The position numbers were made by a program, and so were the translations under genes. Shown here one piece after another: positions 4,775 through 15,654 of a stretch of DNA of 47,642 nucleotides (position 1 is its first letter; every line of letters starts with the position of its first letter). Below the pieces are notes generated by a model that was not told where the DNA came from, ran no database searches, and saw only the letters and a list, made by a program, of their open reading frames with translations. The stretch is taken from assembly GCA_022360445.1 (NCBI GenBank), contig JAKSCV010000066.1:1-47642 (forward strand). Reading direction: 5' to 3'. The stretch comes from Gammaproteobacteria bacterium (lineage in GTDB: Bacteria > Pseudomonadota > Gammaproteobacteria > UBA5861).

Positions 4775-5182
4775 ATGTCCACGAGTATAAAGACTAGAGG
4801 GCCTTTGATACAGCGAAGAAGCATTGACGAGCGTCGAACGGATGGACGTTTTCTGAACCAGTCTCGTCTTTACGTGCAGATTGCCCACTCCCGGGAAGAC
4901 CTTTCGTTGAGAGGTCAGACGTTTGTCAGCAGCACAATCGATATTTCCCCGAAGGGGCTCCGGTTGCGGGTTGACCACCCGGTAATGATGGGGTGTGGAC
5001 TGGACCTGTGGATGAATATCGAAGGGCATCATGGCAAGTTCTTTCTTCATGGGGTTGTTAAATGGACAATGCCGTCCAGCAAAGAGGCGGATTATCTGAT
5101 TGGGATTGAACTGGTTGATGTACCCAAAACAGATCACCAAAAATGGCAAAACTGGCTGAGTAAATTTGCAAAAAACTATTGA
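4775..5182 (+). CDS. PilZ-domain protein (c-di-GMP effector)
   Basis: This 135-residue single-domain protein has an Arg-rich N-terminal motif (RRSIDERRTDGR, residues ~14-25) corresponding to the RxxxR c-di-GMP-binding segment. The second PilZ signature, (D/N)xSxxG, is present as DISPKG near residue 60, followed by LRLRV and a later KWTMPSS/YLIGIEL barrel portion. Both binding motifs are intact, so dinucleotide binding is likely; the target is unknown. The gene lies on the opposite strand between rsxG and rsxE, and its 3' end overlaps the rsxG 3' end by 7 nt. It is not the PilZ of the pilus cluster, which lies 30 kb away. Confidence 0.88.
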   Translation: MSTSIKTRGPLIQRRSIDERRTDGRFLNQSRLYVQIAHSREDLSLRGQTFVSSTIDISPKGLRLRVDHPVMMGCGLDLWMNIEGHHGKFFLHGVVKWTMPSSKEADYLIGIELVDVPKTDHQKWQNWLSKFAKNY

Positions 5183-5814
5183 TCATTTGCCGTTTCTGCA
5201 TTCAGGAGTCGCTCTTGATTGTTCTCAAAAAATTGCAACGATCGGTAAACGGCACCCACAACTGCGCGAGGCGTAATGGTCGCTCCTGTAAATTGGTCGA
5301 AGACGCCCCCATCTTTTTTGACCGCCCAGTCGGAAGGGGACAAATTGAATAAAGACAAGCCATTAAACCCCAGTATCCAATCGGACTTTTCGGCCTCGAT
5401 GGCATCACCCAGCCCCGGCGTTTCTTTATGCTGGATAACGCGCACACCAGAAATTGTGCCCTCTGCTTGTATACCGACCAAGAGCTGGATTCTGCCGTTG
5501 TAACCATTGCGGGCGGTGGCTGTCAGAATAACGGCAACGGGTTGACCGTCCTGGGTGGCTCGGTAAGCAGGAACAGGTGCTTTGCTACCCAGTAATTCCG
5601 GTGAGTGAACGGGTAGCGCGCTGGTGATAAGGTCATTGTCCCACCCGCTTTGAGAGACAACTTGTGAGAGTCTGGCGAGTAGTTCCTGGCGTTCATTTCC
5701 CTTAATTTGGTCACGTGTTTGTTTATGAGTCAGGGCAACCAACGCTGTGCCGATGACGGCAAATAAACAGAGGATAAGTGCAGAACCTAGGACTTGTTGT
5801 AGAGGTGTCTTCAT
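5176..5814 (-). CDS. rsxG: Electron transport complex subunit RsxG (RnfG)
   Basis: This 212-residue protein has an N-terminal membrane anchor (residues ~7-30) and a periplasmic FMN-binding domain. The covalent flavin site is FTGATITPRAVV near residue 173; the Thr after GA is the residue that carries FMN by a phosphoester bond. An ETPGLGD motif upstream is also conserved in the family. The start overlaps the rsxD stop by 1 nt (TAATG). In its 3' end the last 7 nt are shared with the convergent PilZ gene. RsxG passes electrons within the Rsx complex on the periplasmic side. Confidence 0.95.
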   Translation of the reverse strand: MKTPLQQVLGSALILCLFAVIGTALVALTHKQTRDQIKGNERQELLARLSQVVSQSGWDNDLITSALPVHSPELLGSKAPVPAYRATQDGQPVAVILTATARNGYNGRIQLLVGIQAEGTISGVRVIQHKETPGLGDAIEAEKSDWILGFNGLSLFNLSPSDWAVKKDGGVFDQFTGATITPRAVVGAVYRSLQFFENNQERLLNAETANDQ

Positions 5815-6839
5815 TAGTGACCAAATGTACGGGGTTGGTAAAAGTGATCAATAGTGGGTGCGGCCAGATTCATAATCAGCACGGCAAAGGCGATGCCATC
5901 AGGGTAGCCTCCCCATGCGCGAATGACATACACCAGTACACCGATACCCGCAGCATAAATTAATCGGCCTACCGGGCTGGTGGATGCGGTTACAGGGTCA
6001 GTTGCAATAAAAAAAGCAGCCAGAATAACGCCGCCACTGGCGAGATGAAACAGGGGAGGCGAAAAGTAGGTGCTATCAATGAGAGCAAACAGGCTTGCAA
6101 CCAGTAACAGACTGCCGAGAAAAGCAACCGGAATATGCCAACTGATTACGCGCTTGTAGAGTAACCAGAGCCCCCCCAGTAAATAACCGAGAGAAACCCA
6201 CTCCCAACCGCGAGCGCCAAGCCAGCCATAACTGTCATGCGAAGCGAGTGTTGCCAGGTCATCACCGAGCCGTAATTGGGTCTTAGTGTAATCCAATGCC
6301 GTAGCCATTGTGATCCCGTCAAGGCGCACGGTCTCAGGCAGTATGCCCGTGAATAAAAACCGGACGGTTTCTGTAACACTGAGCGTGTGCGTGAGCATGT
6401 CACCGGGGGCTGGCCATTGGCTTAACTCCCGAGGAAAGGAAATCAGCAACACAACATAGCCTACCATGGCCGGGTTAAAGGGGTTGTGTCCCAACCCGCC
6501 ATAAAGGTGCTTGGCCACAAGGATGGCTGATAAAACCCCAATGACGGGGATCCACCACGGAGCAATGGGGGGGAGTGACAGGGCCAATAAGCAAGCTGTC
6601 ACCAATGCGCTGTAGTCTAAGAGCGCAGGCGCGACCGGGCGACGTCGGAGCTTCATCACCACCGCTTCTGCAACGATGGCTGTCACACAAGCAATGGCCA
6701 GATTTATGAGCACTCCCCAGCCAAATAGCTCTGTCGAAATAAGTACGCCAGGCACCAATGCATAGAGTACATTTTTCATGAGTGTGCCGGTGTGCGCCGC
6801 ACTGCGGGTATGCGGGGACATTGCCGATTGAAAGTGCAT
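5814..6839 (-). CDS. rsxD: Electron transport complex subunit RsxD (RnfD)
   Basis: This 341-residue polytopic subunit is homologous to NqrB. The N-terminus has the SPHTRSAAHTG segment; NPFNPAMVGYVVLL lies in the middle and FFIATDPVTASTSPVGR toward the C-terminus. The covalent-FMN motif is DGITMATAL (residues ~177-185); its second Thr is the flavin attachment point in the family. About nine hydrophobic helices are visible. It sits 2 nt after rsxC and overlaps rsxG by 1 nt, as in the standard rsxCDG order. Together with RsxG it forms the flavin path through the membrane. Confidence 0.95.
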   Translation of the reverse strand: MHFQSAMSPHTRSAAHTGTLMKNVLYALVPGVLISTELFGWGVLINLAIACVTAIVAEAVVMKLRRRPVAPALLDYSALVTACLLALSLPPIAPWWIPVIGVLSAILVAKHLYGGLGHNPFNPAMVGYVVLLISFPRELSQWPAPGDMLTHTLSVTETVRFLFTGILPETVRLDGITMATALDYTKTQLRLGDDLATLASHDSYGWLGARGWEWVSLGYLLGGLWLLYKRVISWHIPVAFLGSLLLVASLFALIDSTYFSPPLFHLASGGVILAAFFIATDPVTASTSPVGRLIYAAGIGVLVYVIRAWGGYPDGIAFAVLIMNLAAPTIDHFYQPRTFGH

Positions 6840-6841
6840 GG

Positions 6842-8770
6842 CTAGGAGGGGCCTCTATGTGCCGAAGATTGGCGCTTCTCTGCCCGTCGTTTAGCGGCTG
6901 CGGCTGCACGTTCGGCTGCTGTTTTGGGTGCGAGCGCGTCGTCCGTCGGATTTGTTGAAGCACTCTGCTGGGCTTTTTTCTCTGCCCGGCGCTTGGCGGC
7001 TGCCGCTGCACGTTCGGCCGCTGTTTTGGGTGCGGGTGCGTCGTCCGTCGGGTTTGTTGCAGGACTCTGCTGGGCTTTTTTCTCTGCCCGGCGTTTGGCG
7101 GCTGCCGCTGCACGTTCGGCTGCAGTCTGGGGTGTGGGTGTGTCGTCCGTCGGGTTTGTGGCCGGTTCTGAGGCGGGTTCTGTGACCTTGGGGGCGTCTT
7201 GTGCGTCCTTTTTCTTTTTTACGCGGGCCAAGGCGGCTTGGATGGCATCTTGTTTGGTGCCTCCGTCTGTATGTTGTTCTTTTGTTTTCTTTTCCAGTTG
7301 CTGGCGCTTTTTGGCGAGCCGGTCCTCTTTTTCTTGTGCGAGCGCTTCTTCTCGTTTCGTTTTACTTTCGAAGCGTTGTTTTGCAATCTCAGCGGCAGCC
7401 ATTTCCTGCTCGCGCGTTTTGATTTCAGATTTGGTGTAACGGTAATGTTGAACCAAAGGGATATGGCTGGGACAGACGTAATCGCAACATCCGCACTCAA
7501 TGCAGTCAAAGAGGTTATGCTTTTTAGCTTTTTCGTGTTCGCCTGATCGGCTGTACCAGAGTAGCTGTTGGGGTTGCAGTTGCGCGGGACAGACTGCTTC
7601 GCAAGCACCACATCGGATACAGGGGATTTCTTGTTTGATCTCCGGGGTTTTAGGCGTAACGAGAATGCAGTTGCTGGCCTTAACAATGGGAAGTTGGTCG
7701 TGTTCGAGTGTGAAGCCCATCATCGGGCCGCCCATGATGAGTTGGCCGGTGTTTTCTTGGTAGCCACCGCATGCCTCAATGAGTTGATGAATGGGAGTGC
7801 CAATCAGAACTTCCAGGTTTGCCGGGTTGCGAACGCCTTCACCTGTGATCGTGACAAGGCGGGAAATAAGGGGGTTGCCCTGCATCACCAGCTGGTGAAT
7901 CGCATAGACGGTCCCAATATTTTGGCAAACGACACCCACATTAGCCGGTAATCCTCCACTGGGCACCTCCCGACCTGTGAGTAGTTTGATCAGTTGTTTT
8001 TCACTGCCGCTTGGATAGCGAGTGGGGACGACCGTAAGCTTGATGCGGTCATCTGGTTTGGCTTTGAGGGCATGTTGCAAGCTTGTGATAGCGTCTGGTT
8101 TGTTGTCTTCAATACCAATAATGCAGTGTGGGGCCCCCAGTAATCTCAGCAGGATATCAATACCGCGGATAATTTCGTTGGCAAAGTGCTGGGTGAGTAT
8201 GTCATCGCAGGTGATGTAGGGTTCACACTCAATCGCATTGATGATCAAGGTGTCGATGGGGTGAGTGGGGGTGAGTTTTGTTGCAGTGGGAAAAGCTGCG
8301 CCTCCTAATCCAACGATGCCACCTTCGCGAATGGCTTGGCGCAGGGTTTCTGCAGGTAGCTCGGAGTAGCGATTGCCAATGGGTGCGCGGTCGGCCCAGG
8401 TATCTTTGCCGTCAGTGGCCAGAGTGATGCAGGCTGCCGGCAACCCTGAAGGGTGTGGGATGGTACGCTCATCAATGGCGACGATTTTTCCTGATGAGGG
8501 GGCATGAATGGGTGCGCCGACAGGGTTTTTGCTGTCTGCAATTTTTTGTCCCTTCAGCACAGTATCACCGACTTCCACAAGCGGTGTGTTGACGCCTCCT
8601 GCCTGCTGTTGCAAAGGAATGACCAGCTGTGGAGGGAGGGCCGCTTTTTTCAATGGGTGCTGCTTTGAAAGCGCCTTATGGTCAGGCAGCACTAAGCCCC
8701 CATGAAACGACCAAGCCGTATCATGCGCTATTTGAGTATTTAGCGATTTTCTGCGTCGAAAAAAGTTCAA
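6842..8770 (-). CDS. rsxC: Electron transport complex subunit RsxC (RnfC), with repeat tail
   Basis: This 642-residue peripheral subunit binds NADH and FMN. The N-terminal barrel has [11 protein letters not shown] and LKGQKIA; the Rossmann-like part has [12 protein letters not shown] and [14 protein letters not shown]; the ferredoxin region has two [4Fe-4S] motifs, [12 protein letters not shown] and [12 protein letters not shown]. After about residue 440 comes a Lys/Glu/Ala-rich tail that ends in three near-identical 34-residue units (NPTDD...[13 protein letters not shown]). The start overlaps the rsxB stop by 4 nt. The catalytic part is standard; long charged tails are known in proteobacterial RsxC and vary in repeat number between strains. 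Confidence 0.96.
6860..7156 (-). repeat. 102-bp tandem repeat in the 3' end of rsxC
   Basis: Three direct copies with an exact 102-bp period, marked by the core GTCGTCCGTCGG at 6938, 7040 and 7142. Each encodes 34 residues beginning NPTDD and including [20 protein letters not shown]. The third copy, at the C-terminal end, is cut short and diverges after AEK. The period is a multiple of three, so slippage or recombination would change tail length without breaking the frame. Confidence 0.95.
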
Positions 8771-9333
8771 TTTAAGTGTGTCTTTGATTTCGCTTGAGTG
8801 GAGTGATCAGGTTTCGGCCACTTCCAGGTCATCACTGTCTGCTTAACCGGTTCCATTGTAATACAGTCAACGGGGCAAGGCGGAAGGCATAACTCACAGC
8901 CCGTGCACTCATCTGCAATGACAGTATGCATTTGTTTGGCAGCCCCCAAAATGGCATCGACCGGGCAGGCTTGAATGCACAAAGTGCAGCCAATGCATGT
9001 GCTTTCGTCAATCACGGCAACCGCCTTGGGCTTGACTTCTCCATTCTCAGCATTAAGAGGAATGACCTCTCTGTCCAAGAGAGCGGCCAGTGCCTGGATG
9101 CCAGCCTCTCCTCCCGGTGGGCACTGGTTGATTTCGGCTTCTCCGTTGGCGATCGCTTCCGCGTAGGGGCGGCAGCCCGGGTACCCACATTGTCCGCATT
9201 GTGTTTGCGGTAAAATATTGTCGATCTGATCGGCGATCGGGTTTCCTTCGACTTTAAATCGGATCGCGGCATAGCCCAGCAGCAGGCCAAAAGCCAGTGC
9301 CAGGGCGCAAAGGATTGCAACGGCGATAACCAT
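8767..9333 (-). CDS. rsxB: Electron transport complex subunit RsxB (RnfB)
   Basis: This 188-residue iron-sulfur subunit has an N-terminal membrane anchor (residues ~3-25). A four-Cys cluster domain follows ([16 protein letters not shown], with NQCPPGG), then a two-cluster ferredoxin domain ([16 protein letters not shown] and [16 protein letters not shown]). It feeds electrons from RsxC toward the membrane subunits. It begins 4 nt after the rsxA stop and overlaps rsxC by 4 nt. The length and cysteine set match the family with nothing missing. Confidence 0.96.
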
Positions 9334-9337
9334 TTTG

Positions 9338-9919
9338 TTAGGCCCTCACCAGGCCGGTAAAGCCCATAAACGCAAGTGACATCAGTCCGGCTGTAATCAT
9401 GGCGACAGCATTCCCCTTGAAGGGGGCTGGCACATCGGCAACTTCGATCCGCTCGCGCATGGCAGAGAATAAAACTAACACCAGAGAAAAACCGATCGCG
9501 GCGCCTGCGCCATAGAGGGCGCTCTCAACCAGTTTATGTTGTTCTTGAACATTCAAGAGTGCCACACCCAAAACGGCGCAGTTAGTCGTAATCAAGGGAA
9601 GAAAGATACCCAATACATTATAAAGCAGAGGACTGGTTTTGCGTACGACTGCTTCTGTGAATTGGACGACGGCTGCAATGATGAGGATAAACACCAGAGT
9701 ACGCAGGTAGGTGATTTCAAACGGTTTCAGTAAGTAGGTGTTGGCCAGGTAGCTGCAAACCGAAGACAGTGTGAGTACGAACGTCGTTGCCAGGCCCATA
9801 CCGAGTGCCGTTTCCAGTTTGCGGGAAACGCCCATGAACGGACACAGGCCCAAAAATTTCACCAGCACAAAGTTATTGACAAGAATTGTGCTCAATAAAA
9901 TAAGAGCATACTCTATCAT
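9338..9919 (-). CDS. rsxA: Electron transport complex subunit RsxA (RnfA)
   Basis: This 193-residue integral membrane protein has six predicted helices and is paralogous to RsxE in inverted topology. Signature segments are [20 protein letters not shown] near the N-terminus and [20 protein letters not shown] in the middle, holding the two cysteines that help bind the intramembrane Fe-S centre. It is the first gene of the rsxABCDG run. The transcript should start in 9920-10142, where a strong hairpin (9961-9988) would fall in the leader or the promoter region. Confidence 0.96.
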
Positions 9920-13037: not shown

Positions 13038-13051
13038 TTGATCTACATCAT
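13038..13051 (+). promoter_or_regulatory. FNR/Anr-type box upstream of ubiU
   Basis: TTGATCTACATCAT matches the FNR consensus TTGAT-N4-ATCAA at 9 of 10 fixed positions. Its centre is about 107 bp upstream of the ubiU ATG. E. coli ubiUV is known to be activated by Fnr without oxygen, so the box fits the gene's role. No strong -10 follows at the class II distance; the nearest is a weak match around 13074-13080. Confidence 0.65.
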
Positions 13052-13151: not shown

Positions 13152-14150
13152 ATGGAGCTGGTTTGTCCTGCGGGTAATTTGCCCTCACTCAAAGCTGCTG
13201 TTGATAACGGCGCTAACGCGGTGTATGCCGGCTTCAAAGATCAGACTAATGGACGGCACTTTGCCGGTTTGAATTTTGATGACCAGGCGCTGAGTCGAGG
13301 GATTGAGTATGCACACAGGCACGGTGTCCGCGTGTTTTTAGCAATCAATACTTATCCTCAACCCAGTACCTGGCCCCGCTGGCAACAAGCGGTTGATCAC
13401 GCAGGTGAGCTGGGTGTTGACTGTTTGATTATTGCCGATCTGGGAGTGATGGACTATGCGCGCAATCGATGGCCTGATATGGACTTACACCTCTCTGTTC
13501 AAGGCTCTGCGACTAACTACGAAGCAGTAGAGTTTTTCCGGCGCCACTTTGGGATTAAACGCGTGGTTTTGCCGCGCGTGTTATCAGTCAAACAGATTCA
13601 ACAGGTCATTGTCCACACTCAGGTCGGCATTGAGGTGTTTGGGTTTGGCAGTCTTTGTGTCATGGTCGAGGGGCGTTGCGCCCTGTCATCTTATGTGACA
13701 GGTGAGTCGCCAAACACCTACGGAGCTTGCTCCCCGGCTCAGTCGGTTGAATGGGTTGAGCGATTGGATGATGGCATGGATACCCGTTTGAATGGTTTGT
13801 TGGTTGATCGGTTTAACGCTAACGAAAAAGTGGGTTATCCCACCTTGTATAAAGGCCGTTTTGATGTGGCAGGTAATACTTATCATGCTATGGAAGAGCC
13901 AACCAGTTTGAATACATTGGCAATATTGCCTGATTTGTTTAAGGTGGGGGTAAAGGCAATTAAGCTAGAAGGCCGACAGCGGAGCCCTGCTTATGTGGCG
14001 CAGGTCACTTCTGTCTGGAGGGCGGCTATTGACCACTGTCAAAAAGATTCCGGCAGGTATCTCACGCGGGCGGATTGGTTATCTCAACTGGAAAAGGTGT
14101 CGGAGGGAGCTCAGACAACCTTGGGGGCGTATTGCCGGCCTTGGCAATAA
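13152..14150 (+). CDS. ubiU: O2-independent ubiquinone hydroxylation protein UbiU, cluster ligand altered
   Basis: This 332-residue U32-family protein aligns end to end with E. coli UbiU (MELVCPAGNL... to TTLGAYCRPWQ). The start is the ATG at 13152; an in-frame ATG 30 nt upstream would add a non-conserved extension. UbiU and UbiV form a heterodimer that, with UbiT, hydroxylates the ubiquinone ring without O2 using prephenate. Each partner carries a [4Fe-4S] cluster. The E. coli ligands are Cys169, 176, 193 and 232. Here C169, C176 and C193 are kept at the same numbers, but the fourth position is Tyr233 (YPTLYKGRF, codon TAT at 13848-13850). UbiV, 14 nt downstream, keeps all its ligands. A single-base change or sequencing error cannot be excluded. 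Confidence 0.95.
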   Translation: MELVCPAGNLPSLKAAVDNGANAVYAGFKDQTNGRHFAGLNFDDQALSRGIEYAHRHGVRVFLAINTYPQPSTWPRWQQAVDHAGELGVDCLIIADLGVMDYARNRWPDMDLHLSVQGSATNYEAVEFFRRHFGIKRVVLPRVLSVKQIQQVIVHTQVGIEVFGFGSLCVMVEGRCALSSYVTGESPNTYGACSPAQSVEWVERLDDGMDTRLNGLLVDRFNANEKVGYPTLYKGRFDVAGNTYHAMEEPTSLNTLAILPDLFKVGVKAIKLEGRQRSPAYVAQVTSVWRAAIDHCQKDSGRYLTRADWLSQLEKVSEGAQTTLGAYCRPWQ

Positions 14151-14164
14151 GGGATAAGAAAGTG

Positions 14165-15046
14165 ATGAAACTGTCTGTCGGCCCTAATTTTTACTATTGG
14201 CCAAAAGAAAAAACTCTGGAATTCTACCGGCGGCTCATCGATTTACCGGTCGATATTATTTATCTTGGTGAAACCGTTTGTGCGAAGCGTAAGCAGATGC
14301 GCACAGAAGATTGGTTAGTGTTGGCAGAAGAGCTGGCTGCAGCGGGGAAGGAGGTTGTTTTGTCAACGCTCGCACTTTCCGGATCTGAGTCTGATATGTA
14401 CACGCTCAAGCGGATCTGTAACAACGAGCAATTCGTGGTTGAGGCCAATGATTTCGGCGCGATTGGTGTCTTAGAGGGTCGGCCATTTGTCGCCGGCCCC
14501 GGTGTCAATCTTTACAATCATAAAAGCCTGGCTTGGTTGGCGCAGGTAGGGCTTAAGCGGTGGGTGCTCCCAGTTGAACTGGGTTGTGAAACACTTACGG
14601 CTCTGCAATCACACCGACCTGACAACCTAGAAACGGAAGTTTTTGCGTTTGGTCGGCTCCCGCTGGCCTATTCTGCCCGGTGTTATACCGCTCGTGCCCA
14701 CCAGTTACAGAAAGATCAGTGTCAGTACCGGTGCTTGGAATATCCCGAGGGGATGTTGCTATCAACGCAAGAAGAGCAGGTGTTTTTGGCGATCAATGGT
14801 ACGCAAATGCTCTCTGCGCAGACCTACGATGTGATCGCAGAATTGGCGGCGCTGGAAGCCTTGAGTGTCGATGTTCTGCGTTTGAGCCCGCAACCTGAAT
14901 ATATGGATCACGTGATCAATACCTTCCATATGTGTCTCACCCATAGATTGGCACCGGCAGAGGCGGCTACAAGGCTGAATGACTGGGTGTCTTCTGGCGT
15001 GTGTAATGGGTATTGGCATGGGGATGCGGGTATAAAAAGTATCTGA
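14165..15046 (+). CDS. ubiV: O2-independent ubiquinone hydroxylation protein UbiV
   Basis: This 293-residue U32-family partner of UbiU begins MKLSVGPNFYYWPKEK at the ATG at 14165; an in-frame GTG/ATG at 14075 lies inside ubiU and is rejected. Cysteines at 39, 173, 186 and 190 reproduce the family spacing (the last three as C-x12-C-x3-C), so its [4Fe-4S] site looks complete. It is in one transcription unit with ubiU and faces ubiT 61 nt away. The set supplies ubiquinone under anaerobic conditions, for example for denitrification or other anaerobic respiration; no respiratory genes of that kind are in view besides Rsx. Confidence 0.95.
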   Translation: MKLSVGPNFYYWPKEKTLEFYRRLIDLPVDIIYLGETVCAKRKQMRTEDWLVLAEELAAAGKEVVLSTLALSGSESDMYTLKRICNNEQFVVEANDFGAIGVLEGRPFVAGPGVNLYNHKSLAWLAQVGLKRWVLPVELGCETLTALQSHRPDNLETEVFAFGRLPLAYSARCYTARAHQLQKDQCQYRCLEYPEGMLLSTQEEQVFLAINGTQMLSAQTYDVIAELAALEALSVDVLRLSPQPEYMDHVINTFHMCLTHRLAPAEAATRLNDWVSSGVCNGYWHGDAGIKSI

Positions 15047-15107: not shown

Positions 15108-15605
15108 TCAGGGGTGTTGGCGGATGGACCCCAATGTTTCTACGAGCCGACTGGTTTTGTCGGCTAACGACTGTAAATATTTCCATTGGCGCGTTAAGTC
15201 CAATGCATCAAGGAAGTTTTTCACGTATAGGCCCAGCTCGGTGTCTCCGCTGAGTTTTAATCGACGGTTAAAAAATAAGGTATCTGGGTCTTCTCTGCGA
15301 CTGGCTAACAGCAAAAAGTCATAAACTGTGCCTTGCATGGTTACATCCGGACGGACTTTTTGCCGAGGTACCATGATTTTTTGGTTGATCAGCGTGACGT
15401 ACAGAGTGAGCTCTAAATCGTTCACTTGCAGGGCGATGACTTTCTTCTGTAGAAAAGATAACTCATCATTGAGCCGCTCTTTTTTAAAGAGCTGATTAAG
15501 AGCCTTCACAAATACCTGATTATGTGATGCCACAGGGATTAGTTGACACGGCAAACGAAAAAAAACAGGCAGTCGAGGGCTTTTTTTAAGGGGTTGGGTT
15601 TTCAT
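15108..15605 (-). CDS. ubiT: Anaerobic ubiquinone accessory protein UbiT (SCP2 domain)
   Basis: This 165-residue SCP2-type lipid-binding protein is recognised by DPDTLFFNRRLKLSGDTELGLYVKN (near residue 107), almost as in E. coli UbiT. UbiT is the accessory factor that works with UbiU-UbiV in the O2-independent pathway, probably by presenting the polyprenylated intermediates. It converges with ubiUV, so the three genes form two transcription units rather than one operon. The ATG at 15605 has no Shine-Dalgarno sequence, and an FNR-like box is centred 42 bp upstream, which would place the transcription start almost at the ATG if it acts in the class II position. Confidence 0.9.
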   Translation of the reverse strand: MKTQPLKKSPRLPVFFRLPCQLIPVASHNQVFVKALNQLFKKERLNDELSFLQKKVIALQVNDLELTLYVTLINQKIMVPRQKVRPDVTMQGTVYDFLLLASRREDPDTLFFNRRLKLSGDTELGLYVKNFLDALDLTRQWKYLQSLADKTSRLVETLGSIRQHP

Positions 15606-15640: not shown

Positions 15641-15654
15641 TTAATCTAAATCAA
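15641..15654 (-). promoter_or_regulatory. FNR/Anr-type box upstream of ubiT
   Basis: Read toward ubiT, the site is TTGATTTAGATTAA, matching TTGAT-N4-ATCAA at 9 of 10 fixed positions. A CATAAC -10 candidate lies at 15619-15614, about 22 bp downstream of the box edge, giving near class II spacing. The predicted start site falls at about 15606-15608, next to the ATG. Confidence 0.65.

What the first reader, a model, noticed from the sequence alone, without database searches (positions are those of the whole stretch)
13848..13850. UbiU has Tyr in place of its fourth [4Fe-4S] ligand
Cys169, Cys176 and Cys193 are at the same positions as in E. coli UbiU, but the residue matching Cys232 is Tyr233 (TAT). 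The surrounding YPTL-KGR is conserved. UbiV in the same operon keeps all four cysteines. Either the cluster is held by three Cys and another ligand, or UbiU works without it, or the gene is decaying. A single-base sequencing error is also possible (TGT to TAT).
Basis: partly seen in the sequence, partly recalled or inferred. Interest (0 to 1): 0.7.

Follow-up and report, generated by a model that had tools for sequence, protein, structure and literature searches.

The report
UbiU missing one iron-sulfur cysteine
In this bacterium a protein needed to make ubiquinone without oxygen has a tyrosine where every relative examined, including its nearest sister species, has one of the four cysteines that hold its iron-sulfur cluster; this looks like a recent single-letter mutation that probably weakens or disables the enzyme, not a new kind of cluster.

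Summary
The window's ubiU (13152-14150, +) has TAT/Tyr233 at 13848-13850, aligned with E. coli Cys232; Cys169, Cys176 and Cys193 and all four UbiV cysteines are present. The column is Cys in all 72 other UbiU sequences aligned. The only congener held (94% identical, syntenic) has TGT. A Tyr version of the motif occurs in none of 368 other genomes of the class sampled, and a scan of about 85,000 species for 12 non-Cys residues in the motif found no UbiU. So this is a single, recent G-to-A change in one lineage (or one assembly). The rest looks maintained: no frameshift, pairwise dN/dS 0.09, ubiUV adjacent, ubiT convergent, FNR-like boxes before ubiU and ubiT conserved in the congener. A second change at an otherwise invariant site (Ala34Gly) also lies on this branch. 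UbiH and a UbiF/UbiI-like hydroxylase remain for the aerobic route. Best reading: a recent missense allele that probably impairs the UbiU cluster. A working three-Cys cluster is not excluded: some UbiUs in intact ubiTUV loci, e.g. Acidiphilium, naturally lack Cys169. Sequencing error or a strain polymorphism cannot be excluded without reads.

The parts
13152..14150 (+). ubiU, 332 aa, U32-family O2-independent ubiquinone hydroxylase subunit; only copy in the genome
   Evidence: NCBIfam NF047963 UbiU equivalog 536 bits, cut-off 440; Pfam PF01136; the other hit in the genome is a 34% identical U32 relative
13848..13850 (+). codon 233 TAT (Tyr) at the position of the fourth [4Fe-4S] ligand (E. coli Cys232)
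   Evidence: sequence; alignment with 72 other UbiU sequences, all Cys; TGT in the congener
13656..13658 (+). Cys169 codon TGT, first ligand
13677..13679 (+). Cys176 codon TGC, second ligand
13728..13730 (+). Cys193 codon TGC, third ligand
13251..13253 (+). codon 34 GGA (Gly) where all other intact UbiU sequences aligned have Ala; second change at an invariant site on this branch
14133..14135 (+). codon 328 TGC (Cys), found in no other sequence of the panel (Ser in the congener, usually His); possible but untested substitute ligand
14165..15046 (+). ubiV, 293 aa, partner subunit with all four ligand cysteines (39, 173, 186, 190)
   Evidence: NCBIfam NF047965 391 bits, cut-off 275
15108..15605 (-). 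ubiT, 165 aa, SCP2-domain accessory factor, convergent with ubiUV
   Evidence: NCBIfam NF047962 138 bits, cut-off 47
13038..13051 (+). FNR-like box TTGATCTACATCAT upstream of ubiU, one mismatch to TTGATNNNNATCAA, conserved in the congener
15641..15654 (-). FNR-like box (reads TTGATTTAGATTAA on the - strand) upstream of ubiT, one mismatch, identical in the congener

Best explanation
This is an ordinary ubiU gene in an otherwise intact, FNR-box-bearing ubiUV/ubiT locus. It acquired a single G-to-A transition (TGT to TAT, Cys233Tyr) after this lineage split from its sister species. Shown here: the codon, its alignment with the experimentally identified ligand, its uniqueness, the intact partner genes and the low overall dN/dS. 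Inferred: loss of the fourth thiolate leaves the UbiU [4Fe-4S] cluster absent, unstable or reduced in nuclearity, so O2-independent hydroxylation by UbiU-UbiV is reduced or lost, while ubiquinone is still made with oxygen by the flavin hydroxylases. It is most likely a recent, mildly or strongly deleterious missense allele, possibly the first step of losing the anaerobic pathway.
For: The congener has TGT and differs from the window at 58 synonymous but only 19 amino-acid-changing codons in ubiU; its pairwise dN/dS of 0.09 is within the range of neighbouring genes (0.00-0.22), and no coding gap appears in 12 genes compared. Cys in 72 of 72 others; no Tyr motif in 368 other genomes of the class; no UbiU among 6 hits in about 85,000 species. 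Of 59 columns invariant in the rest of the panel the window breaks two (34 and 233) and the congener none; UbiV breaks none of 32. The gene is single copy. Two Ubi hydroxylases above the family cut-off, UbiH and a UbiF/UbiI-like one, remain. In E. coli, UbiU C193A C232A with UbiV holds about half the iron of the wild type, and C176A abolishes function (PMC6747719; PMC10470549).
Against: Overall constraint on the gene is not visibly relaxed: polarised changes are 8 nonsynonymous to 11 synonymous on the window branch against 4 to 8 on the congener branch, Fisher p = 0.72. ubiV and the FNR-like boxes are kept. No single Cys232 mutant was reported in the papers read, so the effect of losing this thiolate alone is unknown. 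Without reads, a base-calling error or a minor allele cannot be dismissed.
Confidence: 0.52

Rival explanations
1. UbiU still works: the cluster is held by Cys169, Cys176 and Cys193 plus a non-Cys ligand (Tyr233 phenolate, solvent, or the lineage-specific Cys328), or the fourth iron is open and may bind substrate, as in other site-differentiated [4Fe-4S] enzymes.
For: The locus is otherwise intact, constrained and carries conserved FNR-like boxes. Other UbiU proteins above the NCBIfam cut-off lack a different ligand, Cys169 (Gly), while lying in intact ubiT-ubiU-ubiV operons: L109 and L110; a UbiU of Acidiphilium multivorum pACMV3 has the same change. Cys328 is new in the window.
Against: Cys233 is invariant everywhere else, including in the Cys169-lacking proteins. 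Tyr is a very rare Fe-S ligand (own knowledge).
Confidence: 0.22
2. Sequencing or assembly error, or a minor strain variant captured by the consensus: the real or majority codon is TGT.
For: One transition separates TAT from the TGT of the congener. The genome is a 110-contig draft. Tyr is found nowhere else.
Against: No frameshift or in-frame stop in 12 genes compared with the congener. A second change at an invariant column on the same branch, Ala34Gly, involves two base differences in its codon, so it is unlikely to be a base-calling error. Isolated consensus errors are rare a priori (own knowledge).
Confidence: 0.21
3. UbiU has lost its cluster but keeps hydroxylase function in this organism, so that only the UbiV cluster is needed.
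For: UbiV keeps all four cysteines and the pair has not degenerated.
Against: E. coli UbiU C176A, reported to lack the UbiU cluster, makes no ubiquinone (PMC6747719, PMC10470549). Three of the four ligands are retained here, which would be unexpected if the cluster were dispensable.
Confidence: 0.05

Closest known systems
E. coli UbiU (YhbU), O2-independent ubiquinone hydroxylase subunit (PMC6747719)
   Same: U32 family, full-length homology, neighbouring ubiV, ubiT close by, three of the four ligand cysteines at the same numbers
   Different: Tyr233 in place of Cys232; one-residue insertion near 202; Gly34 instead of Ala
UbiU of the congener G001 (L003)
   Same: 94% identical, same gene order, same FNR-like boxes
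   Different: has Cys233 (TGT) and Ala34
Cys169-lacking UbiU proteins (Acidiphilium multivorum pACMV3 L121; L109; L110)
   Same: UbiU family members in intact ubiTUV loci with only three of the four ligand cysteines
   Different: the missing ligand is the first (Cys169 to Gly), it is shared by several sequences, and Cys233 is kept

Membership tests
UbiU (NCBIfam NF047963) | full-length match above the curated cut-off | tested here: met
   536 bits against a cut-off of 440, residues 1-332
UbiU (NCBIfam NF047963) | four [4Fe-4S] ligand cysteines (C169, C176, C193, C232 in E. coli) | tested here: not met
   three present, the fourth is Tyr233; the gene is a ubiU ortholog but is not claimed to be a working [4Fe-4S] UbiU
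UbiU (NCBIfam NF047963) | ubiV directly downstream and ubiT nearby | tested here: met
   ubiV 14165-15046, ubiT 15108-15605 on the other strand
UbiU (NCBIfam NF047963) | FNR-type anaerobic control upstream | tested here: inconclusive
   FNR-like boxes before ubiU and ubiT, conserved in the congener; one mismatch each, binding not tested
UbiU (NCBIfam NF047963) | forms a heterodimer with UbiV, binds a cluster and supports anaerobic ubiquinone synthesis | not testable with these tools
   needs protein work and complementation
TrhP (tRNA hydroxylase, U32) | match above the TrhP cut-off | tested here: not met
   173 bits against a cut-off of 534

The most novel reading that the evidence does not exclude
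UbiU in this lineage carries a functional [4Fe-4S] cluster held by three cysteines plus Tyr233 or Cys328, or with an open iron. Together with the Cys169-lacking UbiUs this would show that one ligand of the UbiU cluster is replaceable and that the cluster may bind the oxygen donor or substrate rather than only transfer electrons.
Probability: 0.12. Interest if true: 0.65.

Novelty: new variant of a known kind. Interest (0 to 1): 0.27.

Why it matters
The role of the UbiU cluster (electron transfer or catalysis at an open iron) is unsettled, and no single Cys232 mutant is reported in the papers read. A natural Cys232Tyr allele, next to natural Cys169-lacking UbiUs, points to direct tests of which ligands are needed. 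If the allele is only a recent lesion, it is a small example of early loss of anaerobic ubiquinone synthesis and of how a high-scoring family match can hide a missing cofactor ligand.

Tried and rejected
An established Tyr-type UbiU clade: rejected, no other case in the class sample or in the species-wide pattern scan. Misalignment of position 233: rejected, the YPT-x-x-KGR block aligns without gaps. A second intact UbiU copy in the genome: none, the only other hit is a 34% identical U32 relative. Whole-gene relaxation on the window branch: not significant. Two hits at invariant sites among 8-10 window-branch changes are about what random placement gives (expected 1.4-1.8), so they do not prove relaxation. 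Cys328 as substitute ligand: not testable, since the AlphaFold2 model (mean pLDDT 91) is confident but its coordinates are not exposed and it contains no cluster; Foldseek finds only a partial match to a U32 structure, 5d88, and various barrel enzymes. A maximum-likelihood tree for branch lengths timed out. The literature search for Tyr-ligated [4Fe-4S] precedents gave nothing direct.

Full report
ubiU runs from ATG 13152 to 14150 on the + strand (332 aa). It scores 536 bits against the NCBIfam UbiU equivalog (cut-off 440), is followed by ubiV (391 bits, cut-off 275) and faces a convergent ubiT (138 bits, cut-off 47). Codon 233 at 13848-13850 is TAT. An E. coli UbiU taken from a public record has cysteines at 169, 176, 193 and 232, the four ligands named by Pelosi et al. 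(PMC6747719); in the alignment E. coli Cys232 falls on window Tyr233 inside the conserved YPTL-x-KGR block. The other three ligand codons are TGT, TGC and TGC. UbiV keeps Cys39, 173, 186 and 190.

The substitution is unique and recent. The only congener held (G001, 94% identical UbiU, syntenic) has TGT at this codon and the same neighbours. In an alignment of 74 UbiU loci from the class, all 72 others with a letter in the column have Cys. Searching 369 genomes of the class for the Tyr form of the motif found only the window's genome; the Cys form occurs in 73 of 350. A scan of one genome for each of about 85,000 species for [G/A]-Y-P-T-x-(any of 12 non-Cys residues)-K-G-[R/S]-[Y/F] gave six hits, none in a UbiU reading frame. 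Limits: this pattern misses Arg, Gly, Trp and AGY-Ser replacements and diverged flanks, and the own genome may be left out of that collection.

The rest of the locus looks maintained. ubiU differs from the congener at 58 synonymous and 19 amino-acid-changing codons (dN/dS 0.09, inside the 0.00-0.22 range of the neighbouring genes). There are no frameshifts or stops. FNR-like boxes with one mismatch to TTGAT-N4-ATCAA lie before ubiU (13038-13051) and before ubiT (15641-15654); both are conserved in the congener. FNR sites are the rule upstream of ubiU and ubiT in Pseudomonadota (PMC11707229). Eight such near-matches occur in the window against 2.3 expected, so each alone is weak evidence.

There is a hint, not proof, of weaker constraint on this branch. 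Of 59 columns invariant in the rest of the panel the window breaks two, Ala34Gly and Cys233Tyr, while the congener breaks none; UbiV breaks none of 32. Polarised changes (8 nonsynonymous to 11 synonymous on the window branch, 4 to 8 on the congener branch) do not differ (p = 0.72), and two hits on invariant sites is about what random placement of 8-10 changes would give.

Physiological setting: the genome has UbiH and one UbiF/UbiI-like flavin hydroxylase above the Ubi-hydroxylase family cut-off, no Coq7, no NarG and no MenD above cut-off. So ubiquinone can probably be made with oxygen, and no menaquinone route through MenD is evident (the futalosine route was not searched). Loss of UbiU would then matter only for growth without oxygen (inference).

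Mechanism. In E. coli each of UbiU and UbiV holds a [4Fe-4S] cluster. The UbiU C193A C232A double mutant with UbiV has about half the iron of the wild-type heterodimer, and C176A abolishes function. Loss of Cys232 alone is not reported in the papers read. The simplest expectation for Cys233Tyr is a lost, unstable or [3Fe-4S] cluster and reduced or absent hydroxylation. A working cluster with three cysteines cannot be excluded. While surveying the family I found UbiU proteins that lack a different ligand, Cys169 (Gly), in intact ubiT-ubiU-ubiV operons: L109 (G134), L110 (second copy in G121) and Acidiphilium multivorum pACMV3. A motif scan allowing Cys or Gly at 169 in 398 genomes of the phylum found 111 matches, all Cys, so this form is rare. 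It keeps Cys233, which makes the window's case separate.

Structure: AlphaFold2 with 73 sequences gives a confident model (mean pLDDT 91), but coordinates could not be read, so the distance of Tyr233 or of the lineage-specific Cys328 to the cluster site is unknown. No UbiU relative is solved by sequence; by fold the best match is a partial one to the U32 structure 5d88.

Verdict: a real and unique substitution of an experimentally identified ligand, best read as a recent missense allele in a still largely intact gene (0.52). Rivals are a functional three-Cys cluster (0.22), error or polymorphism (0.21) and a working cluster-free UbiU (0.05). Reads and a C232Y complementation test would decide.

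Noticed in passing
L109 (G134:C36:4412-5377), L110 (G121:C120:1742-2716), L121:1501-2481 (Acidiphilium multivorum pACMV3): UbiU proteins in intact ubiT-ubiU-ubiV loci with Gly instead of the first ligand Cys169 (motifs FGNIGMMAEGRC, FGSVGPMSEGRC, FGSLGTMVEGRC) while keeping the other three cysteines. Shared by several sequences, so more likely a functional three-Cys UbiU form than the window's single case.
   Followed up: partly
window 13251-13253: Ala34 of the TNARHF motif is Gly here, Ala in the congener and in every other intact UbiU aligned; second lineage-specific change at an invariant site.
   Followed up: yes
window 14133-14135: Cys328 near the C terminus is found in no other UbiU of the panel (Ser in the congener, usually His); a conceivable replacement ligand, not tested.
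   Followed up: partly
L014/L027 (G034:C169:1642-2558): ubiU of another genome is split between two reading frames (query residues 1-103 and 127-332), a likely frameshift or assembly error in a low-quality genome.
   Followed up: no
G001 (congener), L113: Only one Ubi-family flavin hydroxylase above cut-off was found in the congener, against two in the window's genome (UbiH at G000:C61 has no counterpart above cut-off); assembly gap or real loss not resolved.
   Followed up: partly
window 5176-9919 (-): Genes of the Rnf/Rsx electron transport complex (rsxG, rsxD, rsxC, rsxB and the RnfA-like 193-aa ORF) lie a few kilobases upstream of the ubiquinone locus.
   Followed up: no
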